Below, one piece after another: positions 8,175 to 63,840 of a DNA stretch of 64,000 bases (the first letter of the stretch is position 1; each line of letters begins with the position of its first letter). The notes below the pieces were generated by a model that was given only the letters and a program-made list of their open reading frames with translations, was not told where the DNA came from and made no database searches. The position numbers and the translations under genes were made by a program. Source of the DNA: a virus. The stretch covers positions 1 through 64,000 of IMG/VR virus record IMGVR_UViG_3300045973_001103, one strand, 5' to 3'.

Positions 8175-8683
8175 GCTACTTCCCCTCCCTCAACTTCATG
8201 CAGCTGGGGTTCTTCGGCAAGAAGGCCCAGGCCGCGGCCGGCGGCGCCCCGGACAATCCGAACGGCTACGCCAACATCAAGCGCTTCTTCGGCTTCAAGA
8301 CCAAGCCGCTCCAGGAGCCCACAGAGCTGTTCAATGTCGGCTCCCGCGGCGGTGAGAAGCCTATGCTGCTGCCGGTGAAGCCGCCACCTCCCCCGCCCCG
8401 GTGGAAGTGCCAGTTCAAGGCGGACCTGGAGATGCGCGACAACCGAAACTGCCAGGTCATTATCACTCGCGACTGGGCCAAAGACCAGGACCGCATGACC
8501 CAGGAAGAACTCGAGAAGAAGTACGGGGCGGACTTCAGGCGGTGGTGCGCCACGCTGAAGCGGGAGATCAAGACCAAGAGATTTCATGACAGCGACCGCG
8601 CGCTCATCCGCACCGCGGATGTCAGCTACGTTTTGTTCAGCATACGGCAGTGGGTGGATGACACCGACGCCGGACCTCGGTAA
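8171..8683 (+). CDS. protein of unknown function
   Basis: A 170-residue protein started by GTG in a GTGA overlap with the previous stop. The N-terminal third is Gly/Ala rich, a Pro run (about residues 70-76) divides it from a charged C-terminal half. No family recognised. Confidence 0.65.
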   Translation: MSYFPSLNFMQLGFFGKKAQAAAGGAPDNPNGYANIKRFFGFKTKPLQEPTELFNVGSRGGEKPMLLPVKPPPPPPRWKCQFKADLEMRDNRNCQVIITRDWAKDQDRMTQEELEKKYGADFRRWCATLKREIKTKRFHDSDRALIRTADVSYVLFSIRQWVDDTDAGPR

Positions 8684-8695
8684 GGAGAACTGAAA

Positions 8696-9085
8696 ATGCC
8701 CCAGAACATAATATTGGCCAAACTGCGCAAAGACATAGCGGTACGTGATCAGATGATCCGCGCCCGTGACTCATGGGTCAAGGACCGTGACAAGCACATC
8801 GCCAACCTGAATAAAGGCCTGGCCGAGCAGGCACAGACCGTTATCAAGCTGCGCGCGGACCTGGAGCGCCGGGATAAGGTCATTGAGGCCTACCAGATCA
8901 AGAACGAGTTCATCTCCAAAGCTGGGCGTGAAACCATGATCGTGAAGGTCGGCTCTGTCGAGCACAAGTGGATGCCGAGCCCTGCGCAGTTCGCCGCGAT
9001 AACCAAGCGGATCAAGAACTCCAAGATCGATGAGAAATACAACATCCTGCTGACCCACGCATTCACCGAGGCGCACATACTTTAA
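8696..9085 (+). CDS. coiled-coil protein, paralogue of the 7881-8174 gene
   Basis: A 129-residue protein with an AAGGAGAA ribosome site. Residues 1-75 form a long basic coiled coil; residues 80-129 match the C-terminal domain of the 7881 gene (MIVxxG and a terminal I-D-x-x-x-N-I pattern). Possibly a DNA-associated small protein, but that is a guess. Confidence 0.7.
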   Translation: MPQNIILAKLRKDIAVRDQMIRARDSWVKDRDKHIANLNKGLAEQAQTVIKLRADLERRDKVIEAYQIKNEFISKAGRETMIVKVGSVEHKWMPSPAQFAAITKRIKNSKIDEKYNILLTHAFTEAHIL

Positions 9086-9939
9086 TGGCCATCGCGCGCG
9101 ACTACCAGCCGGAGTATCAGCCGCCCATTAAGAAGGCGAAGGCGGTCACCAACGGGTGGACCCACGGCGGGCTCATCACGGATCTCTGTGAGAACGTGAA
9201 CGGCACGGACTACATCTGCGGCGAGGTGTACGCCGGCAGCCGCTTCCTGGAGCGCCGGCCGTGCCCTGACGCGCTGCGCGTGCGCATGTCCTACTCCCGG
9301 CCGGACTTCGCCATCTACGAAATCAAGGTGTCCAGGCCTGACTTCTTGTCGGATCTCCGTTCGGACAAGTGGCAGACCTACCTCCCTTACTGCTCCCGCT
9401 TCTACTTCGCCACCCCTGAGAAAGGGGTCGCCACGATTGAGGATATCCCTTTCGTAGCCGGCTGGATGGTCCGCGGCGAAAAGGGCTGGCGCACGATCAA
9501 GACGCCCAAGGTGCGGCAGTTTGAGCCGGACTTCCACTACGCCCTGGCCCTGCTCATCAGCGAGCAGAAGTACCGGGTGCGGGCCGAGAACCTGGCGGCA
9601 GCCAACCGCAAGATGGCACATGGCCATAACGTCAGCTGGAGCAAGAAGGTTATTGATCGCGTGCGCGTCACCGAAGAGGCCATCAAGAATAACTGGGAGT
9701 CGCGCAAGAAGATCATGTCGGCCAAGGCTGCCATCAAACGGCACTTCGGCATCGACGTGGGTGAATACTGGCGCTTCAACGACATGGATTCCATCTTCAA
9801 GGACATGAAGATGGGGCTCGACGCGGCCGACGTAACCCAGATGCGTGCGAACCTAAAGATGCTCTCGGGGATTCTTGACCGCGTGGCCGGGAAGGAGAAG
9901 GCTCCCGAGACCATCGATTGGAACGCCAAGAAGGAATAA
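9085..9939 (+). CDS. MmcB-like PD-(D/E)xK nuclease family protein
   Basis: A 284-residue protein. Residues 73-105 carry the MmcB pattern: RPDFAIYEIKVSRPDF followed by a spaced SDKW-x-x-Y and SRFYFATP. The PD...E-x-K residues are the metal-binding and catalytic set of restriction-endonuclease-like nucleases; bacterial MmcB is linked to DNA damage repair. The C-terminal 130 residues are basic and helical and have no match I know. It lies two genes before a DNA methyltransferase. TAATG overlaps join it to both neighbours. Confidence 0.7.
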   Translation: MAIARDYQPEYQPPIKKAKAVTNGWTHGGLITDLCENVNGTDYICGEVYAGSRFLERRPCPDALRVRMSYSRPDFAIYEIKVSRPDFLSDLRSDKWQTYLPYCSRFYFATPEKGVATIEDIPFVAGWMVRGEKGWRTIKTPKVRQFEPDFHYALALLISEQKYRVRAENLAAANRKMAHGHNVSWSKKVIDRVRVTEEAIKNNWESRKKIMSAKAAIKRHFGIDVGEYWRFNDMDSIFKDMKMGLDAADVTQMRANLKMLSGILDRVAGKEKAPETIDWNAKKE

Positions 9940-33465: not shown

Positions 33466-33938
33466 AAATCCTAAACGGGTATAGCGACCTGGCGCCTGCC
33501 TTCAAAAGCAAGGAAGAGTGCGTCATAAAGGGCATAGACTGGGCTACCCGGTTCGTGCGCCCGTTCCGTTGCCATGTTGTCCAGGTGCCTGCGTGCCTGG
33601 TCCAGCGCATATGCACCACCACGTACAGCAGCATCGCCCTGCCGCAGCACAAATTTCTGGTTAATTCCCTGCCGCAGCACCCGTTCTCATCAGTCCCTTT
33701 GACCAGCCTGCTGCGTGTTCCGCTCGGGCAGCTCCAGCCGCAGTTCGTGGTAGCTGTGGCACCAATCGCTGAGGTTTCCAACAACCCGTATTACCCAAAT
33801 TCAGGCATTATATCCGATCACGTGATCACTTTCTCCCGCATCACCAACGTCAACTACGTGGACGTCAACCCAGTGTACGACGTTGTTCTCGACGAAGGTG
33901 ACACTTACATCCTAAATAACACGGTGCGTGTACTATGA
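33462..33938 (+). CDS. Hint/intein-like small protein next to terminase
   Basis: A 158-residue beta-rich protein. Its end (VYDVVLDEGDTYILNN) has the look of the last Hint/intein blocks (VYDxxVexxHtYxxN), and LPQHKFLVN resembles the internal block-B region, but neither the C-terminal His-Asn nor a clear N-terminal Cys motif is present. A 14-bp in-frame direct repeat (33637-33650 and 33667-33680) encodes LPQH twice. It overlaps the terminase start by ATGA. It may be a relic of an intein or a separate virion gene. Confidence 0.45.
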   Translation: MKILNGYSDLAPAFKSKEECVIKGIDWATRFVRPFRCHVVQVPACLVQRICTTTYSSIALPQHKFLVNSLPQHPFSSVPLTSLLRVPLGQLQPQFVVAVAPIAEVSNNPYYPNSGIISDHVITFSRITNVNYVDVNPVYDVVLDEGDTYILNNTVRVL

Positions 33939-35746
33939 GCCTGCGCAACGCCGTAATTAAGGCCAAGCGCTTCAGCTTGTCACAGTTCGTGCACGATGAG
34001 ACGATAGACAGCGCCATTAAGTTCGTCACCGAGCAGATGAACCAGGTGACCACTGACGTAGAGTTTATCGAGCAGCCGGTCGGATTCAGGGAATTTGTCG
34101 AATCGAAGGACCATATGGACTTCCCGCCGCTCTCCGAGCGGCAGTACATGGTGTTCGACTTCATGATCGGCGACGACCCACAAACCGCATTCAGCAATGG
34201 TAACTCCCTCGCTATCCTCGCCTGGGGTAAAGGGTCCGGAAAAGACACATTGTGCGTGCTGATCCTGTGTTACGTCTGCTACCTGTGCCTCTGCATGAAG
34301 TCGCCACAGGTCTACTTCAAGCAGCCCGAAGGCGAGTGTCTGGACTGCGTGAACATCGCCCCGTCAGGCGCCAAGGCTAACGAGGTATTCTTCGAAAAGC
34401 TGCGTCAGCGCGTGCTCCGGTGGCGCTGGCTCAAAGACAAGTACCCGATCCGGAACTCTGGTGCGTTCATCAGCCAGGTCAAGCCCGACGCTGGTGAGCC
34501 CTACGTCACCATCACGAAGGACGGTATCATTTTCCCGAAGCTGATCCGTCTTCTTTCCAAGAACTCTGACAATGAGAGCGCCGAAGGTCTCAATACGCTC
34601 GTGTACGTTCTCGACGAAGCGTCCGCCTTCCAGGGCACCAACAAGGCACGCAACGCCTCCAAGATTTACCGTAACGTAAAGTCCTCTAGCACCACCCGGT
34701 TCGGTATGCGCGGCAAGGGTTTCATCATTTCCTATCCGCGCGAGATAGAAGACTTCACCATGCAGATGTACCGGGCGAACTTGAAGAACCTCCACGTATA
34801 CACCGACAAGGCCGCAACCTGGGAAGTGAAGCCGCTACACCTGTTCAGCGGCCAGTGGTTCGACTTTGAGGACGGAACCATCGACGTGGTGGTGGACGGG
34901 GTAATGAAGAAAGTACCCAACATCATCCGGGTTCCTCTCGAGTTCAAAGACGAGTTTGATACCAACCCCACCGATGCCAAAATGATGCTCATGGCCGATC
35001 CTCCGGAAACGGAGCACGGTTTCATCGAGTACCCGGAGAAGGTGACGGAGTGCATAGATCCGTCTTCCCGGCCGGTCGTAAACGTTGAGGACTACGTGGG
35101 AGATCCTGGCGGCAAAAACCGTAGCGGACCGAAGGTCTGTAAGCGCATCACCAGCTTCAACAGCAACATCGTCAGCCCTCACGACCACATTATCACGATC
35201 GACCTTGGCCGCAGCACCGACAAGGCCGCGCTGTCTATGTTCCACCGAGAAGTTATAGCCGGCCAGCCCATTTTCGTGCAGGATCTAGTGACTGGATGGC
35301 TTCCGGATCGCAAGAACAAGTACATGGTCTCGTTCACCAATGTGCGCGAGTTCATTCAGCAGCTGGCGGCCCGGTACAGCATCATGGGAGTGTGGTTCGA
35401 CCAGTGGCAGAGCGCATCGTTGCAGGAGGAACTTAACGCCGCGTCCATCCCCTCGTTCGAATATAACCTTGACCTGGCCGACTACAAGACTTTCAAGGAA
35501 ATGATTTACACCAAGCGGTACAAGCTGCTCCCTTTCGCCCCGCAGATCCTGGAGATCAAGCAGCTTATCTCCCTGGGGCACCGTGTAGACCACCCGTCCA
35601 CCGGCAGCAAGGACTACGTCGACACCATTGTCGGCGCCACCAAGGTGTGGTTGCTTAAGCACAAGGCCACCAACGAGGAAGACGGCTGGGGAGAAGTGGA
35701 GACGATCGAGGAAAACCTCACGATGCAGGACCCGTGGGCAAACTAG
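33935..35746 (+). CDS. terminase large subunit
   Basis: A 603-residue packaging motor. ATPase: Walker A AWGKGSGKD (about residues 94-102) and Walker B LVYVLDEAS. Nuclease: IITIDLGRSTDKAALS with the first metal Asp, and the C-terminal Asp in KDYVDTIVGA. It cuts concatemeric DNA and pumps it into the prohead through the portal at 39408. Confidence 0.9.
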   Translation: MSLRNAVIKAKRFSLSQFVHDETIDSAIKFVTEQMNQVTTDVEFIEQPVGFREFVESKDHMDFPPLSERQYMVFDFMIGDDPQTAFSNGNSLAILAWGKGSGKDTLCVLILCYVCYLCLCMKSPQVYFKQPEGECLDCVNIAPSGAKANEVFFEKLRQRVLRWRWLKDKYPIRNSGAFISQVKPDAGEPYVTITKDGIIFPKLIRLLSKNSDNESAEGLNTLVYVLDEASAFQGTNKARNASKIYRNVKSSSTTRFGMRGKGFIISYPREIEDFTMQMYRANLKNLHVYTDKAATWEVKPLHLFSGQWFDFEDGTIDVVVDGVMKKVPNIIRVPLEFKDEFDTNPTDAKMMLMADPPETEHGFIEYPEKVTECIDPSSRPVVNVEDYVGDPGGKNRSGPKVCKRITSFNSNIVSPHDHIITIDLGRSTDKAALSMFHREVIAGQPIFVQDLVTGWLPDRKNKYMVSFTNVREFIQQLAARYSIMGVWFDQWQSASLQEELNAASIPSFEYNLDLADYKTFKEMIYTKRYKLLPFAPQILEIKQLISLGHRVDHPSTGSKDYVDTIVGATKVWLLKHKATNEEDGWGEVETIEENLTMQDPWAN

Positions 35747-39407: not shown

Positions 39408-41204
39408 ATGTCTAAGAAAGACACGAGTGACTTATCGCCAGATGACAAGGGGTTCGCACGGAAAGCGAACTCCATTCTCCCGCAGGGTATGCGCGGGGGT
39501 GGTAGCGGAGCCAAGTACGAAGCCATGATGGACAAATTCCAGGAAGGCGCTTTCTCACGTAAAGCCAGCGACGGCGGCATGGGTTTCATGGACGGCGGCG
39601 GATCAAGCCGCGTGCCCATCATGTACGTCGACCCGATGTTCGACCCGATCCTTCTGATGTTCCCGAAGGAGAACCTCAAGGAACTCAACCGGCGCCTGCG
39701 TCACTATTACTCATTTCACCCGATCGTCCGCAACCTGATCAACCTGCACTCCACCTTCCCGTTCGGCGACATGGAAGTTCGCTGCGAGGATAAGGAACTT
39801 GAGCCGTACTGGCAGGATCTCAGCGAGCGCCTCAACCTGATGCAGATGATCGTCCACATGTCCCGGGACTACGAGCTCCTGGGCGAATCCTTCCACGTAG
39901 GCAACTGGGACGACAACACGATGGAGTGGGAAGCTTTCCACCAGTACCCACCCGAGAACATCGAAGTGCACAAGGTCTACGCCGGCTCCGGCATAGCCTA
40001 CTTCCTCAAGCCCGACGAAGAGCTGCGCAAGATGATGAACTCCTCCAAGGAGATCGACCGCGCCGTAGTCGACATGCTGCCGGCCGAGTTCAAGGACCGC
40101 GTCTCCCAGGGCAAGCCCATCCACCTGGACAACTCCCGGGTGATCCACTACGCCAACAAGTCAGCCGGCTACCTTACCCGCGGCGAATCGCCGCTGAAGG
40201 CCGCCCTGAAGTACCTGCTGGCCGAAGACAAGCTTTATATGCTCATGCTGGTTTTCATCGACCGGCACATGTTCCCGATGAAGATCTGGAAGATCGGCTC
40301 CAAGGAGCAGAAGTGGCTGCCGTCAAAGAAGCACTTCGACATGCTCAAGGCCAAGCTGATAGAGGCCAAGGGCGATCCGGACTACGACCTTATCTACCAC
40401 GCGTTCCTGGAGATGGAATATAAGACCGGTGCCACCCAGCACGAGGATCTCATCAAGTGGTTCGACTGGACCCAGAAGCGTATCCTCATCGCCATGTTCG
40501 CCAACGAGGCTATGTTCGCCGAGGCTAACCCCTACGCGAAAGAGTCCATGTCGATCAAGCTGATCATGCACCGCTATATGCTCCAGCGCGCCCTGGTCAA
40601 CCGCCAGATCACCGACAAGGTGTGGCTGCCCGTCGCCAAGAAGCGTGAGTACATCCTCCGCAACCGCGCCGAGTCCTCCAACAACGTTTCGAACGACAAG
40701 ACCTACCTGCCCGACATCAAGAAGTACGCAGTGCCCAAGCTGTTCTGGCGCCCGTCTAACCTTGTCTCCGGCATGCAGGAGCAGGAATACCTCGCCAAGA
40801 TGCGCAAAGAGGGTGACCTGCCTGTGGAAGCGATCTACGACCTCCTGGGCTTCGACACCAACAAGATGAAGGAAGCCATCCACAACGAGCAGAATACCCC
40901 GCTCGACCCAATGTGGCGCGAGGCTCGCAAGAAGCTCATGGACGACCCTGTGGTGCGTAATGAGTCCCTCCGCGGCCGCAAGCTCAAGGACATCGAGCTG
41001 CCCCGCGACGTTGTGGATCCCAAAGCCAAGCCGGCCGCCGGCCGCCCCGCAGTGCCTGAAGCCGACAAGGCCATTCCGCCAGGCTCCGGCGCCGCCCCGG
41101 GCATGGTCCCGAACAAGCTGGTGTCTCCGCGCGAGAAGCAGCAGGAGAAGGGCGTGCTGCCCGCACCCATGGGCGAGGGCGAGTCCGGAATGCCCCAGGT
41201 GTAA
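39408..41204 (+). CDS. portal protein
   Basis: A 598-residue protein with the layout of large-phage portals: a conserved stem (YYSFHPIVRNLINLHSTFPF), an alpha/beta wing (ENIEVHKVYAGSG), a long helix after IHYANKS, and a Pro/Ala-rich C-terminal tail. It would form the twelve-subunit ring where terminase docks. Position after terminase and before protease and capsid supports the call. Confidence 0.7.
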   Translation: MSKKDTSDLSPDDKGFARKANSILPQGMRGGGSGAKYEAMMDKFQEGAFSRKASDGGMGFMDGGGSSRVPIMYVDPMFDPILLMFPKENLKELNRRLRHYYSFHPIVRNLINLHSTFPFGDMEVRCEDKELEPYWQDLSERLNLMQMIVHMSRDYELLGESFHVGNWDDNTMEWEAFHQYPPENIEVHKVYAGSGIAYFLKPDEELRKMMNSSKEIDRAVVDMLPAEFKDRVSQGKPIHLDNSRVIHYANKSAGYLTRGESPLKAALKYLLAEDKLYMLMLVFIDRHMFPMKIWKIGSKEQKWLPSKKHFDMLKAKLIEAKGDPDYDLIYHAFLEMEYKTGATQHEDLIKWFDWTQKRILIAMFANEAMFAEANPYAKESMSIKLIMHRYMLQRALVNRQITDKVWLPVAKKREYILRNRAESSNNVSNDKTYLPDIKKYAVPKLFWRPSNLVSGMQEQEYLAKMRKEGDLPVEAIYDLLGFDTNKMKEAIHNEQNTPLDPMWREARKKLMDDPVVRNESLRGRKLKDIELPRDVVDPKAKPAAGRPAVPEADKAIPPGSGAAPGMVPNKLVSPREKQQEKGVLPAPMGEGESGMPQV

Positions 41205-41711: not shown

Positions 41712-41885
41712 ATGGCGTTTACAAAATACGGAACCCCCGAACCACTCAAGGTGGTCACGGTCTGCGAGGAGTGTAAGCAGGACCGCCCGTTGATGAAGGT
41801 AACTAAAGCCGGGGTAACAAAACAGCTTTGCGGGGAATGCGTTAAAAAATGGCTCAAACCGGATTCAAAAGATACAGCGCAGTAG
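41712..41885 (+). CDS. small zinc-ribbon protein
   Basis: A 57-residue protein started at 41712, with C-x2-C at CEEC and again at CGEC, a four-Cys zinc ribbon. It overlaps the protease gene by 37 bases. Confidence 0.65.
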   Translation: MAFTKYGTPEPLKVVTVCEECKQDRPLMKVTKAGVTKQLCGECVKKWLKPDSKDTAQ

Positions 41886-43261
41886 AGATCCTCTCGGTTT
41901 ATAACAAACCGGCGGATATTTACCGTCTCGCGTCCGAGTGGGCGGAGTACGTAAAGCAAGGTGGCATCTTCTGCAAGGAAGGCGCCTGCCCTTTCGTCCC
42001 CGGAGAGAAGTTCAACTACGACCTCACCAATTTCCTGTACTATCGCGCACGCGCGATCACCGCGGACATCGCCAACCTCAACGGCGACCGCTTCCCGCAC
42101 ATGGAGCTGCGCCAGTCCTACCAAACTTTCCAGGGCAAGGGCGTGTACTTCAACCATGACAGCGACAAGCCCGAGAAAGCTTTCGGCATAATCCTGGACG
42201 CCGTCTACACCCCGGTCCACTTCAACAACGACGAGTTCCCCGATAAGTACGTCGAGCTGCTCTGCGCCATTGACCGCAAGGCCATTAACCATCTCCGCCC
42301 CGGCCTCCTGGGTGATATCGAGTCAGGGAAGGTCACCAGCACCTCCATGGGCACCATCGCCTCAATGGCCCAATGTTCCATCTGTGGAAACAAGGCCACC
42401 AACATGGAGCAGCTGTGCCTCCACGTGCATCCGCAGTCACCGCTTTACTGTAAGGGCCGCGACGTTTACGGCAAGAAATGCTACGAGGACAACTACGGCC
42501 TCTCCTTTATAGAGGACTCGATCGTGTACGTCCCGGCCGACGCCACCGCCCGCATGCTTGAGGTGTACGCGTCCAAGAACGACGTCTCCGTCAACCGGAT
42601 GGCCGAGCTGTTCGAGAAGTACGCTATCGCTTCCGGCAAGCCCGTCAAGCGCAGCGTCATAGAACTGTCGAGCACTTTCAAGACCACAGGTGGATTTATG
42701 CCAACAGCAGCCAAGCCCGCAGCCCAGCCCGCCCCCGGCCAGCCGGCCGTGTCACCTTACCAGGCGGCAGTAGGGGAACTCAACACTGAAGTGCCCGACG
42801 CGACACAGAAGCTTTTCGAAACCAAGATGCGCCGGATCATAGAGGAAGAGCTGCGCAAGATGTACGGCCCGGCCCTCGAGCAGATGGACAAGTCAGTCCG
42901 CCCCCAGGTGAAAACCCTGGTGGAACAGGAATTTGAGAAGGTGAAGGGCGACATCGGCGCCGTAGTACCTGGCATGGACCAGGCGGAAGCCGGCCCGGCC
43001 GCAGAGGATGAGAAGGGCCAGGCCAAGCCGGCCCCGGCCGCCCCAGCAGCTCCGGCCGCCGCGGCCCCCGCCGCCCCGGCTCCAGCCGCCGCAACACCTC
43101 CGGCAGCACCCGTAGAGTCAGCGATGCAGTACCCGCTGTCTTTCGTGGAAGATTTCTCGGCATGGAACGAAGCCGATAAGAACATGTTGGTACAGGCCGT
43201 AACTTCGGGCAAGTCCTGGTCGTTTAAGGGCGTGCTCGAGTTCCCTGTAAAGGAAGCTTAA
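41849..43261 (+). CDS. probable prohead protease
   Basis: A 470-residue protein. Its first 200 residues have the order expected of phage prohead serine proteases: a strand region with NGDRFP, a catalytic His (KGVYFNHDSD), and a Ser region (GKVTSTSMG). A Cys/His cluster (CSICG...CLHVHP...CKGRD...CYED) follows, probably a zinc site. The C-terminal third is an Ala/Pro-rich linker and tail. The order portal-protease-scaffold-capsid supports it. Confidence 0.65.
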   Translation: MAQTGFKRYSAVEILSVYNKPADIYRLASEWAEYVKQGGIFCKEGACPFVPGEKFNYDLTNFLYYRARAITADIANLNGDRFPHMELRQSYQTFQGKGVYFNHDSDKPEKAFGIILDAVYTPVHFNNDEFPDKYVELLCAIDRKAINHLRPGLLGDIESGKVTSTSMGTIASMAQCSICGNKATNMEQLCLHVHPQSPLYCKGRDVYGKKCYEDNYGLSFIEDSIVYVPADATARMLEVYASKNDVSVNRMAELFEKYAIASGKPVKRSVIELSSTFKTTGGFMPTAAKPAAQPAPGQPAVSPYQAAVGELNTEVPDATQKLFETKMRRIIEEELRKMYGPALEQMDKSVRPQVKTLVEQEFEKVKGDIGAVVPGMDQAEAGPAAEDEKGQAKPAPAAPAAPAAAAPAAPAPAAATPPAAPVESAMQYPLSFVEDFSAWNEADKNMLVQAVTSGKSWSFKGVLEFPVKEA

Positions 43262-45329: not shown

Positions 45330-45452
45330 ACAAATTTCGTTTTACAGTGTACTGAATCAGAAAGCAGAACCAGAAAGAAGACTACACCACATTATGTGGG
45401 TTATGAGGTTGCCAACACCTCGCGAAAAGCAAAGCTGGCAGGTAAAATAACC

Positions 45453-46487
45453 ATGGCATACAGCCCAAGACCCGAAGTAGCCGGCGCGTTCGAAAAGATC
45501 TGGTCACCTCAGTATGAGACGACCACGAACGTAAAAGGCACCGGTGTGGAACGCGGAGCGCGCGCCCTCGTAAAGAAGGCGTCCTTCGAGCAGGTTCCCA
45601 CCCTCGACCAGAAAGAAGCAGCGTTCGACGCGATCCTGCAGAACCCGGGCCCCTCGTTCAAGCGCGTGGCCTTCGCGATGCAGACACCCCTCAAGGACAG
45701 GAACGACTACGTCGCAGTGGGCCGCAAGCTCCTGCTGACCGACGAACTGCCCCAGGGCGAAATCCCCGCGTACGACCTGGACATCCCGGAGTACCCCGCC
45801 CTTGCAGTCGGCGCCCGCGGTACGCCTCCGCTGGTGGAAGCCAACATCCAGCGTATCTTCATACCCACCTTCTCGATCAACATCACGAGCTCGGTGCACT
45901 ACGAAGAGATCCAGATAAGGCGCTTCCCCGCCTTCGACCGCGCCAAAGAACGCGTGGCCATCGCTAACGCGATCACCGAGGACGATCAGGTCTTCGGGCT
46001 GCTCGATCGCGCCGTACAGGTCGGCCCCAACCCGATCATCGGCGTAACCGGGCCCGCACAGCGCGCAGACATGGTAAGGATGGCAGGACACCTGCTCTCC
46101 AGGCAGCTCGCCCCGGGCGCATACGTCATGCACCCCATGCGCTACACGGACATCCTGTCCTGGAACGCAGACCAGCTGGACCAGGTCTCCCTGAACGTCA
46201 TCGTGGAAACCGGCCAGTTCGGCGTGCTCCACGGCATCAGGCTGATCATGTCGACCCGCGTGAAGCCCACCAGGATCTACCTCACAACCACACCCGACAA
46301 ACTCGGCCGTATCCCCGAGCGCAAGGCCGTGGAAGTGAAAGTAGTTGACTGGCCAAAAGATACCCGCTACTATGTGACCTCATGGGAACAGGTAGGCTTC
46401 GGTATCCACAACACCGCCGGTGTCGTGGGAATGGACCTCAACGGTCTGTCAGCGAACGAGCTGCCCGCTCAGTTCCCTCTGTGCTAA
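45453..46487 (+). CDS. major capsid protein
   Basis: A 344-residue protein with features of the HK97-fold capsid of large phages: an N-arm, a central region with VEANIQRIFIPTFSI and repeated hydrophobic strands, and a C-terminal VTSWEQVGFGIHNTAG. Its codon use is highly biased to C-ending codons, consistent with heavy expression, and it is flanked by hairpins at 45298 and 46516. The start at 45453 lacks a strong ribosome site; an upstream in-frame GTG (45396) is possible. Confidence 0.7.
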   Translation: MAYSPRPEVAGAFEKIWSPQYETTTNVKGTGVERGARALVKKASFEQVPTLDQKEAAFDAILQNPGPSFKRVAFAMQTPLKDRNDYVAVGRKLLLTDELPQGEIPAYDLDIPEYPALAVGARGTPPLVEANIQRIFIPTFSINITSSVHYEEIQIRRFPAFDRAKERVAIANAITEDDQVFGLLDRAVQVGPNPIIGVTGPAQRADMVRMAGHLLSRQLAPGAYVMHPMRYTDILSWNADQLDQVSLNVIVETGQFGVLHGIRLIMSTRVKPTRIYLTTTPDKLGRIPERKAVEVKVVDWPKDTRYYVTSWEQVGFGIHNTAGVVGMDLNGLSANELPAQFPLC

Positions 46488-46515: not shown

Positions 46516-46540
46516 CCCCCGGGGGCTAGTCCCCCGGGGG
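46516..46540 (+). terminator. strong intrinsic terminator after the capsid gene
   Basis: Two copies of CCCCCGGGGG pair over 10 bp around a 5-nt loop (CTAGT), followed by TATCTTTAAA. Position directly after the capsid gene supports termination or mRNA 3'-end protection. Confidence 0.75.
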
Positions 46541-46575
46541 TATCTTTAAAAACGAACCTGAAGGAGACCACGAAT

Positions 46576-46977
46576 ATGGCCGACAAATCAGAAGCGGATA
46601 AAGCAGCAGACCTCAAAGCCTTTAATTTTTCCTCGTACAACAAACTCCACTGGATGCTCGGCGGCGAGGACTATGCCCTCAAGACCGCCAAGGATCTCTT
46701 TGTGCAGGACCTTAAGCGCGCACAGAAGTATGAGCAGGACCTGTGCATCGCCCGCGGCGGCACCAGAGTGATGGACGACAACCTGTTCAACCACGTCTGT
46801 AAGCTCGCAGACCAGTGTAAGAGCTTTTACGAAGTGGAAGCCCTTGCGCGCTTCGTCTTCGATGACAACCGCATGCCGGAGATGCCCGAGATCCGGACCA
46901 AAGCGGAAGCACTGCGCAAGATCATGCCGGTGTTCGACATTCTCAAGGCCACCAAAAACGTCAGAAGGAGCTTCTAA
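46576..46977 (+). CDS. protein of unknown function after capsid
   Basis: A 133-residue helical protein started at 46576 with AAGGAGA. It contains two scattered Cys. Probably a head-completion or internal protein by position only. Confidence 0.6.
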   Translation: MADKSEADKAADLKAFNFSSYNKLHWMLGGEDYALKTAKDLFVQDLKRAQKYEQDLCIARGGTRVMDDNLFNHVCKLADQCKSFYEVEALARFVFDDNRMPEMPEIRTKAEALRKIMPVFDILKATKNVRRSF

Positions 46978-46979
46978 TC

Positions 46980-47474
46980 ATGTCTTCATGGAATTTTAAC
47001 GTACCCAAGTCCGACGCACTCAACACCCTTAATCGCCTGGCGACCAAAGGCATGGACCCCCTCCAGGACGACTCCAAAGCCGTCATGGACATCGCGTCGA
47101 CCGCGGCCGGCGTGGCCTCCAACGATCCGGAGAAAGAACGCTTCCTTGCGGACCTGTACAACAAGTCCGACATGTCCCAGGGTATGGACCCCAAGTCTGA
47201 ACTGTACCAGTTCATTCAGGAAGAGGCCACCAACAGCCTGCAGCAGGTCCAGCAGCAGCTCGCCCCGATCATCACCAAGTACCCGGACCAGGGCGACAGG
47301 GACCGCCTTACCGGCGACTACAAGGAAAGCTACATCGACAAGCGCTTTAACAACATCAAGGACGCCTGGGAAGACATCCGCCCCAGCCAGACCGTCAACC
47401 CGGCTCCCGGCCAGCAGGCCGCCCCAGTCGCTGCCCCAGGGATGGCCCCGGCGGTGGCAAGGCGGTCACTTTAA
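46980..47474 (+). CDS. head-region protein, zero-frame product of a +1 frameshift gene
   Basis: A 164-residue helical protein with a Pro/Ala/Gly-rich end. Its last codons AGG CGG TCA CTT before TAA C match the RF2 frameshift site. Ribosomes that stop give this short form; ribosomes that shift +1 continue into the 47473-48336 frame, giving about 451 residues. Function unknown. Confidence 0.7.
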   Translation: MSSWNFNVPKSDALNTLNRLATKGMDPLQDDSKAVMDIASTAAGVASNDPEKERFLADLYNKSDMSQGMDPKSELYQFIQEEATNSLQQVQQQLAPIITKYPDQGDRDRLTGDYKESYIDKRFNNIKDAWEDIRPSQTVNPAPGQQAAPVAAPGMAPAVARRSL

Positions 47475-47475
47475 C
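47455..47475 (+). promoter_or_regulatory. programmed +1 frameshift signal of RF2 type
   Basis: AGG CGG TCA CTT TAA C, read in the zero frame. It matches E. coli prfB AGG GGG TAT CTT TGA C in the Shine-Dalgarno-like element, its 3-nt distance to CTT, the slippery Leu codon, the stop and the following C. Slippage of the peptidyl-tRNA from CTT to TTT puts AAC in the A site and enters the frame at 47473. Confidence 0.7.
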
Positions 47476-48336
47476 CGGTCGGCCAGCGCCGCATTCTTCG
47501 ACAGCGAGCGCGTGGTCATGAAGGCCGCGGTGGACTCTGAAGTCCCCGTGGGCACTCTCGGCACCATTATCCGTGCGGACCAGGAAGATTCAGACCTCAA
47601 CACGTATGAGGTCCAGTGGGACAACGGCGTGCACAGCGACGGCATGCGCGAATACAACATGGAGATCGCCCCGGAGACCAACCAGATCGCTCCGCAGTCG
47701 TACCTGGAGCGCTTTGAAGCCCGGCAGATCCGGAAATCCATACCGGAGATCTTCGCGTCCGCGCGCCGGCTCCGCATGTACCTGCGCCAGGCCGCCAACA
47801 AGCAGAGCCCGCAGGAGATCATGGCCGAGTTCAAGAGCAAGGTCGTACCGTTCCTTGACAATTATACGTACCAGAAGCTCGACACCGGTGACCAGATCAT
47901 CATCCCGGACTCCTCGGAGATGTGGAATCAGATCCACACTGAGCTGGACACCTACCACGACCTGCTGAAGCCCTTCATGGATCAGCCGGACGTAGAAGCG
48001 GTTGTCCGCGAGATCGAAGAGTACCACACCCAGGTGCAGCCCGAGAGCACACCGAAGCACGACCTCGCCAAGCTGAAGGACGTGCCTGATGCTGCCCTGC
48101 TGCCCAACGGCCGCCCGATGCACTCCCCGGACGAACCGGTGGAACACAGCGAGCTGGGCGCCACAGTGGAGAACGTTATCGACAGCCTTCCCTCGGAAGA
48201 GACCGGCATGGATGAACTCCTTGACCGTTGGACACAGTCGCAGTCGCCCGAACAGAAAGCGCAGATAGAGCAGCGCATCAGGAACCTTCACGACAAGATG
48301 CTGCATGCCTATTTGCTCTCCACGAAAAGAATTTGA
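47473..48336 (+). CDS. C-terminal part of the frameshift-fused head-region protein
   Basis: A frame of 287 residues with no plausible start of its own: the first ATG (47518) has no ribosome site and falls inside a domain (SERVVMKAAVDSEVPVGTLG...YEVQWDNG) of SH3/KOW type. Reading from the shift site gives a natural NRSASAAFFDSERV junction. The rest is helical and acidic. Expressed most simply as an extension of the 46980 gene; if separate, its start would be 47512 (GTG) or 47518. Confidence 0.65.
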   Translation, partial: NRSASAAFFDSERVVMKAAVDSEVPVGTLGTIIRADQEDSDLNTYEVQWDNGVHSDGMREYNMEIAPETNQIAPQSYLERFEARQIRKSIPEIFASARRLRMYLRQAANKQSPQEIMAEFKSKVVPFLDNYTYQKLDTGDQIIIPDSSEMWNQIHTELDTYHDLLKPFMDQPDVEAVVREIEEYHTQVQPESTPKHDLAKLKDVPDAALLPNGRPMHSPDEPVEHSELGATVENVIDSLPSEETGMDELLDRWTQSQSPEQKAQIEQRIRNLHDKMLHAYLLSTKRI

Positions 48337-48377
48337 GGGTAACCTCAAGAAGTGAAATCGAACAGTAGGAGAAGACA

Positions 48378-49208
48378 ATGAACGAAACGACAGCTAACCC
48401 TAACCCTGTGACCGCCCCCGCGCCCACCGCAGCCCCTGTGGCCGCCGCGGCGCCCCAGACAGTGAAGATGGTGCGCTATCAGAACATATCCGCGGTGGCC
48501 CTGCCCATCCCGGAGCTCAACGTGATCGTGCCCAAGGACGGATTCTCTCCGCCCCTTCCGGAAGCCACTCCGACACTTAAGGCTTACGTCACCGGCCAGC
48601 TCTTCAAGGCCGAGAACGTGGACATCCCTACGATGGGCATGCAGGCCCAGGCCGTCACTCAGGGTGACGTTAACGCCAACGACAACCAGGGCGTCCGCGC
48701 CCCGCTCGTCGCCGGCCCCGGCCAGCCCACCGCGAAGGTGGACTACAGCCCGATCAAGGTCAGCACGACCGAAGAGAAGCTGAAAGGCTACGACAACTCC
48801 GCAGAGGTAAAGAAAGCCCTCGCGAACACCGTGATCTCCGTGGGTTCAGAGCAGAACCCGATCAACCTGTTCGGCGAGATCCCGGCCGATGAGGCAGTGC
48901 GCCTTATTAAGGCCCAGGGCAACGGCAGTTTCTCAACAGAAGTAAGCGGCGGCGAGTACATCGCCGACGAAGCGCAGAAGATCATAGCCAGCGCCGCGGG
49001 GGTATCCTCCGTGACCGCCAGGCCCATCCCGATGCCTGAAGGGCTTCCGGCTGACCTGGTGCCTTTCTTCCAGCAGACAGGCCTGCAGAAGAAGATCTTC
49101 ATTTACAAGACACCCAACTGGGAAATGCTGAACAAGATCCAGGGTTTCGAAAGGGACGCCAACGTCCTGTCCTGCATCAAGCAGCGCCTGGCTGAACTCG
49201 GAAAATAG
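48378..49208 (+). CDS. virion protein of unknown function
   Basis: A 276-residue protein with an Ala/Pro-rich first 25 residues, then a beta-rich region (VRYQNISAVALPIPEL) typical of virion proteins, and a mixed C-terminal half. AGGAGAA lies before the ATG. Confidence 0.6.
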   Translation: MNETTANPNPVTAPAPTAAPVAAAAPQTVKMVRYQNISAVALPIPELNVIVPKDGFSPPLPEATPTLKAYVTGQLFKAENVDIPTMGMQAQAVTQGDVNANDNQGVRAPLVAGPGQPTAKVDYSPIKVSTTEEKLKGYDNSAEVKKALANTVISVGSEQNPINLFGEIPADEAVRLIKAQGNGSFSTEVSGGEYIADEAQKIIASAAGVSSVTARPIPMPEGLPADLVPFFQQTGLQKKIFIYKTPNWEMLNKIQGFERDANVLSCIKQRLAELGK

Positions 49209-53765: not shown

Positions 53766-55031
53766 ATGGCGCATAAACTCAACCTCGTGAAAACTCGGAT
53801 CATCTCCTCGAAAGAGGAGTTGGTCGCGTTTAAAGTGGAAGCGACCGTAGCCCTGCTGAAGTTCGCAGAGAGCAACGATTGTGACCTGGACGCGATCTCG
53901 CAGCTTCTCGCTGCGAAGTACGCCGAGATAGACCAAGCTCTCGCAGACGGGAACAAGGTCGAGACCGAGGTTGAGATTTATCCCCAGCCGGAAGCTCCGG
54001 TTCAGAAGCAGGCCTGCATGCAGCGCATTGCCGAACCCCTCCATCAGCCGCTCCCCGTCCAGATCGACAATGGGAATCCTGAAGCCCAGGACCCCGCCGA
54101 CCTGCTCGAGGCGCAGCAGGAACGTGAAATAGCTGAAGGAAACATAACCATGGAAGATATCGCCAAACTTATGTCAGAATCCCCCGAGAAGCAGGCGGTG
54201 GCCACCGATATTATGGCCGTTGCTCCGCAGCTGGGAGAAAAGACCGCCTGGGCCCTGATGACCAATGTGGCCCATGGGAAGTACTCCGCCGACGAGCTGA
54301 AGGCTGTTAAAGCCGCACTGAAGGTTCTGGCCGCGGAAGGGGAAGAGGGCGAAGAGCCGGCCGCCGAGGGCGATGACGAAACCGCCGGCGTACACGAGCC
54401 TAAGTCCAAAGAAGACGAATCCATCGAAGGGTTCAACTTCGCCGCCGTCGACGACCTTGTCGTGCGGTTCAACAAGCTTTTAGCGGAAGTGGACCCCGAG
54501 ATGTCCATGCTCCCTCCGATCACCATCGAGGAAGTAAAGCGCAAGCTCTCCGTGGCCAAGGGTGCCGAGCACACAGTACCTGAAGTCACCGGAGATCCGG
54601 ATTTCGTACAGTCCCAGCAGCCCAGCAACGTGGGCGCTAACCTGCTCCTGCCGGCTTTCCACCAGCTCCCTCCTGAAGAGAAGGGCGCCATCATGGAAGG
54701 CATCGAAGTAGGGGACCAGGACAACACCATCGACCAGTGGTACGCCGAGAACGGCATGGACGTCATCGCCGACATGGCCAAGGGCGCCCAGGAGATTCTC
54801 ACCCAGATGGGCGAAGAGCAGATCACCGGGCAGCAGGTAGTGGAACGCTTCCTCGCTGATTCCGGCGGGAAGGGCCACATCACTGCGGAGAACGTTAAGG
54901 AAGTAGTCGGGGAGATCAAGGCAGAGGCCGCCCCGGCCGCCGCCCCGGAACAGGAAGCGCCTGAAGTAGAACAGGCCGCAGTTCCCGAGGTAACCCCGGC
55001 CGCGGAGCCCGTCGCTACACCGGAGGCATAA
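53766..55031 (+). CDS. acidic virion protein of unknown function
   Basis: A 421-residue acidic protein started at 53766 (the open frame extends upstream in shadow). It has helical domains joined by Glu/Ala/Pro-rich linkers and ends in an Ala/Pro/Glu tail, a composition shared with the scaffold and protease tails of this phage. Confidence 0.6.
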   Translation: MAHKLNLVKTRIISSKEELVAFKVEATVALLKFAESNDCDLDAISQLLAAKYAEIDQALADGNKVETEVEIYPQPEAPVQKQACMQRIAEPLHQPLPVQIDNGNPEAQDPADLLEAQQEREIAEGNITMEDIAKLMSESPEKQAVATDIMAVAPQLGEKTAWALMTNVAHGKYSADELKAVKAALKVLAAEGEEGEEPAAEGDDETAGVHEPKSKEDESIEGFNFAAVDDLVVRFNKLLAEVDPEMSMLPPITIEEVKRKLSVAKGAEHTVPEVTGDPDFVQSQQPSNVGANLLLPAFHQLPPEEKGAIMEGIEVGDQDNTIDQWYAENGMDVIADMAKGAQEILTQMGEEQITGQQVVERFLADSGGKGHITAENVKEVVGEIKAEAAPAAAPEQEAPEVEQAAVPEVTPAAEPVATPEA

Positions 55032-61726: not shown

Positions 61727-62095
61727 ATGGCTGTCAAAATACAAAACCGTGCGGACACGAAGCTCAACTGGGAAACCAACAACCCCATCCTTGCGATGGG
61801 CGAGATCGGTTACGACACCGACTCCAACGCCATTAAGATCGGCAATGGTGTGGACCGCTGGCTGGTGCTCCCTTATATCACCAACGCCAATGGGATGACC
61901 CCGCCGGTCATAACCACAGTCCAGCGCGACGCGATACCGGCTCCTACACTGGGGCTCACAATTTTCAACTCGGACACGCTCTCGCTTGAGTCTTACAACG
62001 GCTATGGCTGGAGCGTTCCCGGCGGTGATATACAGTGGGATGGCGGCTCCGCATTCCTTGCGGGCGGCACAATAATCGATGGAGGATACGCATAA
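61727..62095 (+). CDS. fibre-type protein with Mtd-N-like domain
   Basis: A 122-residue protein. Its first 50 residues ([39 protein letters not shown]) match the small N-terminal repeat found in phage fibres and major tropism determinants. The C-terminal half is beta rich. It directly precedes the collagen-like gene, which begins with the same domain. AAGG precedes the ATG. Confidence 0.7.
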
Positions 62096-63840
62096 TGTCT
62101 GTCAGAATACAAATTCGCAGGGATCTCGCAGCCAACTGGACCACCGCCAACCCGAAGCTCTTGCTCGCCGAGGCAGGGTTGGAGATCGACACTAACAAGC
62201 TCAAGTACGGTGATAATCTCCACTACTGGAATGACCTTCCTTATTTCGCAGGCGGCGCTACCGGCGCAGGACCTGGCGCTACCGGCGCAACCGGGGCTAC
62301 CGGATCAGCTGGCGCAACCGGCGCGGCCGGAGTCACCGGAGCTGCCTCAACAGTCCCCGGGCCTACGGGATCCACAGGACCCCAGGGCCTTCAGGGTCTT
62401 CAGGGCGGAGACGGCGCACAGGGCGCTGCTGGCCCCACAGGCGCACAAGGCAACGTAGGTCCCACAGGCGCGACCGGCGCCCAGGGCGGAGACGGAGCAA
62501 ACGGATCTACCGGACCTACTGGCGCACAGGGCATAGCTGGCCCAGCAGGGGCCACAGGTGCACAGGGATCTGATGGTTCCAACGGAGCTACCGGGGCCGC
62601 TGGCGCAACAGGCGCCGCATCCACCGTTCCCGGACCCACTGGGGCCCAGGGCTCTGACGGCGCGGCCGGCGCGACAGGCGCGACGGGCGCTACCGGTGCA
62701 GCTTCTTCAGTAGCCGGGCCTACCGGCCCGCAGGGATCAGACGGCGTGGCCGGCGCGACAGGTGCTACCGGAGCGGCCTCCACGGTCCCCGGCCCCACAG
62801 GAGCCCAGGGTTTTCCTGGCCCTGTAGGTCCTCGCGGCACCACCGGTGTCACCGGAGCAGATTCCAATATACCTGGACCTACCGGAGCCCAAGGCGGTGA
62901 CGGCGCAATAGGTTCTACTGGCGCGACGGGCGCTACCGGAGCAGCTTCCGTGGTCCCCGGCCCCACCGGGGCCCAGGGTTCTGACGGTGCCGTAGGGTCT
63001 CAAGGCCCTACCGGAGCAACCGGCGCAGATTCATTAGTCGCAGGACCCACGGGTGCACAGGGTTCTGATGGCGCGGCCGGCGCGACAGGCGCGACGGGCG
63101 CTACCGGAGCGGCCTCTGTCGTTCCCGGACCTACCGGAGCCACCGGCAACGCGGGCGCGCAGGGCGCCACAGGCATAGGCATCACCGGACCCCAGGGTAA
63201 TCAGGGTGTAGCCGGCCCCACAGGCCCCCAGGGACAGCAGGGCATCCAGGGTGTCCAGGGCGATCTCGGACCTACCGGACCCCAGGGCGTACAGGGGCTT
63301 CAGGGTAACCCCGGAACTCCCGGAGCCGCGGGCGCAACAGGAGCCACCGGAGTCGGAGTATCCGGCGCGACAGGTGCTACCGGCCCCGCGGGGGCCACAG
63401 GCGCTACCGGAGTGGGCGTCACCGGCGCAACCGGAGCAGGCACAGGCTTGATCATCAGGCCGATAACCTTCAGCGGAACCGCACGCATGGTTCTGGTCGC
63501 AGCCGGTAGCTCGGCCGACGTTAACGCGATCGGGGTCACGTTCACCGGTGGCAACACCGTGGCGATCACCGGAGTCACCGGCACTGCCCAGCTGCAGTCC
63601 ATGACCCTGTCTTACGACGCCAACGTGAATGCCAGCACCGGGGTCACCATCACCTACCCTGAAATAGGCGGCGTGGCTGCTCTGGCTGGATCTCAGTTCC
63701 CTATATTCATACCTTATGGGGCCACCAATGTCATCGGAGCGATAACCGCGATCACCATCACCAACACCGCGGGAGTTATGTCGATCGCGAAGACGGGGCT
63801 CGCAACTAACGCGGCCGGAACGTTCCGGGTGCAATTCTAA
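62095..63840 (+). CDS. collagen-like tail fibre protein
   Basis: A 581-residue protein. Residues 1-50 are an Mtd-N-like domain ([15 protein letters not shown]-x-DLPY); about 54-450 are Gly-X-Y repeats rich in Ala, Thr, Pro and Gln; the last 130 are a beta-rich domain (from [10 protein letters not shown]) probably serving trimerisation or receptor contact. The triplets are broken eight times by GA[AD]Sx[VI][PA]GPTG, mostly every 28 residues. Start at 62095 by TAATG overlap. Likely a host-binding fibre. Confidence 0.85.

What the first reader, a model, noticed from the sequence alone, without database searches (positions are those of the whole stretch)
47455..47475. RF2-type programmed +1 frameshift joining two head-region frames
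The end of the 46980 gene reads AGG CGG TCA CTT TAA C. The E. coli prfB (RF2) site is AGG GGG TAT CTT TGA C: same Shine-Dalgarno-like element, same 3-nt spacing, same CTT slip codon, stop and following C. The downstream frame (47473-48336) is clearly coding but has no plausible start, and its first domain begins before its first ATG. A +1 slip gives a smooth 451-residue fusion. Use of the RF2 mechanism to make short and long forms of a virion-region protein would be unusual.
Basis: partly seen in the sequence, partly recalled or inferred. Interest (0 to 1): 0.87.

Follow-up and report, generated by a model that had tools for sequence, protein, structure and literature searches.

The report
RF2-like frameshift in phage virion-region gene
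In an uncultured phage, a short gene just after the major capsid gene ends in a near-copy of the ribosome-slipping signal that bacteria use to make release factor 2, and slipping there would add a 287-residue second half that has no start codon of its own, so the phage probably makes a short and a long form of one protein.

Summary
AGG CGG TCA CTT TAA C lies in frame at 47460-47475. The +1 frame continues to 48336 and gives a 451-residue fusion. But the stop is TAA, not TGA, and the Shine-Dalgarno-like element has one mismatch (duplex -6.5 against -10.3 kcal/mol for prfB).

The motif occurs once in the record; shuffles give none. In a codon-usage segmentation of the window, 47459 is the only frame change that keeps no start codon after inspection. 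The 13 codons between the slip site and the first GTG/ATG look coding, and neither start has a Shine-Dalgarno site.

The nearest relative (capsid 96% identical) keeps the upstream gene as a complete short protein, lacks the downstream half, and has the next gene directly behind. So the second half is a lineage-specific C-terminal module, as in known phage frameshift extensions. No homologue of the module was found, so conservation of the site is untested and an indel cannot be excluded.

Best reading: programmed +1 frameshifting of RF2 type that adds a C-terminal domain to a fraction of a virion-region protein. The nearest precedents, SPP1 gp17.1* and Listeria phage PSA, slip at CCC. Confidence 0.66. 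New variant of a known kind.

The parts
46980..47474 (+). gene 1 (zero frame): 164-aa short form with a Pro/Ala-rich C-terminal tail
   Evidence: ORF with strong SD (-8.0); 44% identical homologue in L002 ending in its own stop after a Pro/Ala-rich tail
47460..47465 (+). Shine-Dalgarno-like element AGGCGG, 3 nt upstream of the slip codon
   Evidence: duplex with anti-SD -6.5 kcal/mol (9 nt) or -8.1 (12 nt), one internal mismatch
47469..47472 (+). slip site CTTT (CTT to TTT, +1)
   Evidence: identical to prfB CTTT (PMC12421855)
47472..47475 (+). zero-frame stop TAA followed by C
47473..48336 (+). +1-frame extension (g2): 287 aa, N-terminal SH3-like part then a mostly helical part; no start codon of its own
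   Evidence: codon usage and GC3; sub-threshold SH3_12; no sequence homologue found
47512..47520 (+). first possible in-frame starts after the stop (GTG 47512, ATG 47518), without SD
48333..48348 (+). hairpin TTGAGG-GTAA-CCTCAA over the g2 stop, counterpart in L002 directly after gene 1; marks the 3' edge of the module
48378..49208 (+). next gene (gene 3), conserved in L002 directly after gene 1
45450..46487 (+). major capsid protein (context)
   Evidence: PHROG major head protein, E 2.4e-28

Best explanation
The end of gene 1 is a programmed +1 ribosomal frameshift cassette of the RF2 (prfB) type. Most ribosomes stop at TAA 47472 and make a 164-residue protein. A fraction pause there with AGGCGG paired to the 16S rRNA 3' end, peptidyl-tRNA-Leu slips from CUU to UUU, and translation continues with AAC in the +1 frame to 48336, giving a 451-residue form that carries an extra C-terminal module (SH3-like plus helical). 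The module is a lineage-specific addition between gene 1 and gene 3, and the frameshift sets the ratio of extended to unextended protein. Shown: sequence elements, two coding frames, lack of a start, and the unextended gene in the nearest relative. Inferred: the slip itself, its efficiency, and a structural role.
For: RF2 geometry (SD-like element, 3 nt, CTTT, stop, C), with 1 match in the window and 0 in shuffles. The best codon-usage switch point lies 12 nt before the slip, with most weight in 47453-47471. After checking the flagged segments, the only startless coding frame in the window begins at 47459. The 13 codons 47473-47511 score as in-frame coding: 62% of true in-frame segments score as high, none of the off-frame ones; permutation 0.8%. 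No SD at the internal starts. L002 carries gene 1 with its own stop after a Pro/Ala tail and no extension, so the short form is a natural product. +1 slips that add a C-terminal domain to virion proteins are known in SPP1 (CCC_UAA, PMC6316719) and Listeria phage PSA (PMC5009743).
Against: No homologue of the extension was found, so conservation of the site and frame change is untested. The SD-like element has an internal mismatch, and the stop is TAA, used by under 1% of prfB sites (PMC12421855). Codon usage slightly favours a switch 12 nt upstream of the slip (2.9 nats), where an inserted base would also explain the data. No downstream RNA structure stands out (z -1.0), though prfB needs none.
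Confidence: 0.66

Rival explanations
1. An indel: gene 1 and the extension are (or recently were) one continuous frame, and a single-base change before 47472, from assembly error or a real mutation in this genome, broke it; the RF2-like motif is a coincidence in a G-rich linker.
For: The codon-usage optimum for the switch is at 47459 rather than 47471 (posterior 0.63 against 0.04), and the +1 frame just before the stop reads as a plausible linker (GGHFNRSAS). No relative shows the frame change.
Against: Needs a coincidence of about 2e-4 to 2e-3 per gene end. No other frame break survives inspection in the 64-kb window, so the assembly looks clean. The short form matches a complete gene in L002.
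Confidence: 0.2
2. The extension is a separate gene that starts at GTG 47512 or ATG 47518, by reinitiation after gene 1 stops about 40 nt upstream.
For: Gene 1 is a stand-alone gene in L002; reinitiation over a short gap is known in general (own knowledge).
Against: No SD at either codon (-2.4 and -3.2 kcal/mol, no better than random positions). Thirteen codons upstream of them look coding. A start there would cut a predicted first strand (low-confidence model).
Confidence: 0.08
3. The frames are joined by another event in the overlap, such as a -2 shift or a slip at another codon upstream of the RF2-like motif.
For: The +1 frame is open all the way up to 46978, so the switch could occur further upstream; -2 shifts reach the same frame in phage Mu (PMC5009743).
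Against: GC3 and codon usage keep gene 1 in frame 0 up to about 47440, and I saw no other obvious slip sequence in 47440-47472.
Confidence: 0.06

Closest known systems
prfB (release factor 2) +1 frameshift cassette, E. coli AGGGGGTATCTTTGAC
   Same: SD-like element, 3-nt spacing, CTTT slip, stop, following C, +1 direction
   Different: TAA instead of TGA, so RF1 can also terminate and RF2-specific autoregulation is not expected; mismatched SD; at the end of a 164-codon virion-region gene instead of near codon 26 of prfB; no release-factor gene in the record
SPP1 gp17.1/gp17.1* (tail tube protein, +1 at CCC_UAA)
   Same: Phage structural gene, +1 slip on the last sense codon before UAA, C-terminal domain added to a fraction of the protein
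   Different: Slip codon CCC, tail tube protein with an FN3 extension; here CTT with an SD-like element and an unrelated protein
[quoted passage not shown]
   Same: +1 slip, extended forms of virion proteins
   Different: CCC slip codon, with a pseudoknot in the capsid gene; no RF2-type cassette described in the papers read
Phage lambda G/GT tail chaperone frameshift
   Same: Ratio of short and long proteins from one phage gene
   Different: -1 slip, tail chaperone; here +1 and next to the capsid gene

Membership tests
RF2-type (prfB) +1 frameshift cassette | CTT codon directly before an in-frame stop, giving CTTT | tested here: met
   CTT TAA at 47469-47474
RF2-type (prfB) +1 frameshift cassette | SD-like element ending 3 nt before the slip codon | tested here: met
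   AGGCGG 47460-47465, spacer TCA; duplex -6.5 with one mismatch against -10.3 for prfB: met in position, weaker in strength
RF2-type (prfB) +1 frameshift cassette | TGA stop followed by C (RF2-specific) | tested here: not met
   stop is TAA followed by C; TAA is the minority stop in prfB sites (PMC12421855)
RF2-type (prfB) +1 frameshift cassette | long coding +1 frame without its own start | tested here: met
RF2-type (prfB) +1 frameshift cassette | encodes release factor 2 | tested here: not met
   no RF-1 family (PF00472) match in the record
Programmed +1 frameshift of a phage structural gene | site and frame change conserved in relatives | tested here: inconclusive
   L002 has gene 1 without the extension, L003 has neither; no other relative found
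Programmed +1 frameshift of a phage structural gene | both products found in virions or lysates | not testable with these tools
   needs proteomics

The most novel reading that the evidence does not exclude
An RF2-type cassette (SD-like element, CUU slip, stop) works outside prfB, in a phage, as a ratio-setting device for a virion-region protein, and its output rises when host release factors run short late in infection, linking virion composition to the translation state of the host.
Probability: 0.13. Interest if true: 0.75.

Novelty: new variant of a known kind. Interest (0 to 1): 0.5.

Why it matters
In the RECODE set analysed in PMC10885494, all +1 sites with CUU before a stop belong to prfB, so a phage gene with the same cassette would show that the RF2 mechanism is portable and can be used to set protein ratios. 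It would also give a simple rule for finding hidden C-terminal extensions of phage proteins that gene finders miss.

Tried and rejected
Homologues of the extension in IMG/VR, INPHARED, GTDB genomes, plasmids and the records of the two relatives: none. Wider searches with capsid, gene 1 and gene 3 alignments: only L002 and L003 again. Phages with distant capsid relatives (phage G, LE2-3, Finch, Tunturi_5, one uncultured) show no detectable counterpart of gene 1 or the extension near their capsid genes. AlphaFold of the 451-aa fusion from a single sequence is uninformative (pLDDT 40). Foldseek with the small SH3-like domain gave no significant hit. A second prfB-like string, GGGGGTATCTTT at 46536-46547, is the 3' arm of a terminator-like hairpin and lies in no relevant frame: rejected. 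Other startless segments flagged by the segmentation (30946, 53730, 63139) are explained by an upstream ATG (30793), an ATG at 53766 with SD, and low-complexity collagen repeats. Rfam: no match around the site.

Full report
Context. The window is 64,000 bases of a 66,412-base uncultured virus record. The region holds a terminase-like gene (33935-35746), portal (39408-41204), a protease-like gene (41849-43261) and the major capsid gene (45450-46487), then a small gene (about 46576-46977), gene 1 (46980-47474), the extension frame (47473-48336) and gene 3 (48378-49208). All lie on the + strand.

Observation. The end of gene 1 reads AGG CGG TCA CTT TAA C, exactly as reported. The +1 frame is open from 46978 to 48336, and a four-base step at CTTT gives a 451-residue protein. 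The motif AGGNGGNNNCTTTRAC occurs once on both strands of the window and never in 100 dinucleotide shuffles; AGGNGGNNNCTTTRA is absent from both relatives' records.

Is the second frame coding, and from where? GC by codon position changes phase between 47370 and 47490. A codon-usage switch model puts nearly all its weight between 47417 and 47471, best at 47459. The 13 codons from 47473 to 47511, which lie before any start codon downstream of the stop, score as in-frame coding at a level reached by 62% of real in-frame segments and by no off-frame segment; 0.8% of permutations reach it. GTG 47512 and ATG 47518 have no Shine-Dalgarno site, while most genes here do. A Viterbi segmentation of the window finds a nearly unbroken chain of genes with starts at the frame changes. 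Four segments were flagged as startless; three have ordinary explanations, and only 47459 remains. This argues for translation continuing from gene 1, and against a generally error-ridden assembly.

Relatives. Only two were found. L002 (capsid 96% identical) has gene 1 (44% identity over 130 residues), which ends in its own Pro/Ala-rich tail and stop; gene 3 follows after a conserved stretch of about 50 bases with a hairpin. In the window the same stretch follows the extension. So the extension sits as a block between gene 1 and the leader of gene 3, gained here or lost in L002. L003 has neither. The extension has no detectable relative, so conservation, the strongest test, could not be made.

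Mechanism. The review PMC5009743 gives 3 nt as the spacing of a Shine-Dalgarno stimulator for +1 slips and CUU_U as by far the best shift site, measured with UAG in place of UGA; the mechanism therefore does not need UGA. In prfB, over 99% of stops are TGA and the rest TAA (PMC12421855). A TAA site can be read by RF1 and RF2, so I expect a fairly fixed ratio of products and not RF2 autoregulation. Phages use +1 slips to add C-terminal domains: SPP1 gp17.1* at CCC_UAA (PMC6316719) and Listeria phage PSA. The same review reports the suggestion that domains landing out of frame by recombination can come to be expressed by frameshifting; the comparison with L002 fits that picture.

Weighing. The motif by chance at this very gene end has a probability of about 2e-4 from codon statistics and at most a few per thousand empirically. 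Codon usage does not discriminate well between a slip at 47471 and an indel a few codons upstream. I put the programmed shift at 0.66, an indel at 0.20, and the rest on reinitiation or another slip. A role of the protein in the virion is inferred only from gene position; the extension begins with an SH3-like domain (sub-threshold Pfam match; low-confidence model).

Novelty. CUU before a stop with a +1 shift was prfB-only in the RECODE data examined in PMC10885494. I found no report of an RF2-type cassette in a phage gene in the papers searched, which is a limited library. Known kind (programmed +1 frameshift in a phage structural region), new variant.

Noticed in passing
46516-46549: Very stable hairpin CCCCCGGGGG-CTAGT-CCCCCGGGGG followed by TATCTTT between the capsid gene and the next gene; looks like a (partial) terminator and chances to contain the prfB string GGGGGTATCTTT.
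   Followed up: partly
L003:109-2328: Portal gene of the relative is interrupted at residue 161 by about 517 bases that the window lacks; the reading frame is open through it (747 aa ORF in L004), so possibly an intein or an inserted domain.
   Followed up: no
L003:9799-10896: TnpB-like protein (zinc-ribbon motif near the C-terminus, read by eye) in the structural region of the relative, next to a DNA-ligase-like gene (8561-9643).
   Followed up: no
61727-63840: Two adjacent tail-fibre-like genes; the second has an Mtd_N (major tropism determinant) domain and long collagen repeats.
   Followed up: no
L007:8511-10180: Bacillus phage G, a distant capsid relative, has an annotated two-piece joined gene (gp22/gp23) a little upstream of its capsid gene; may be another recoding site in this wider group.
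   Followed up: no
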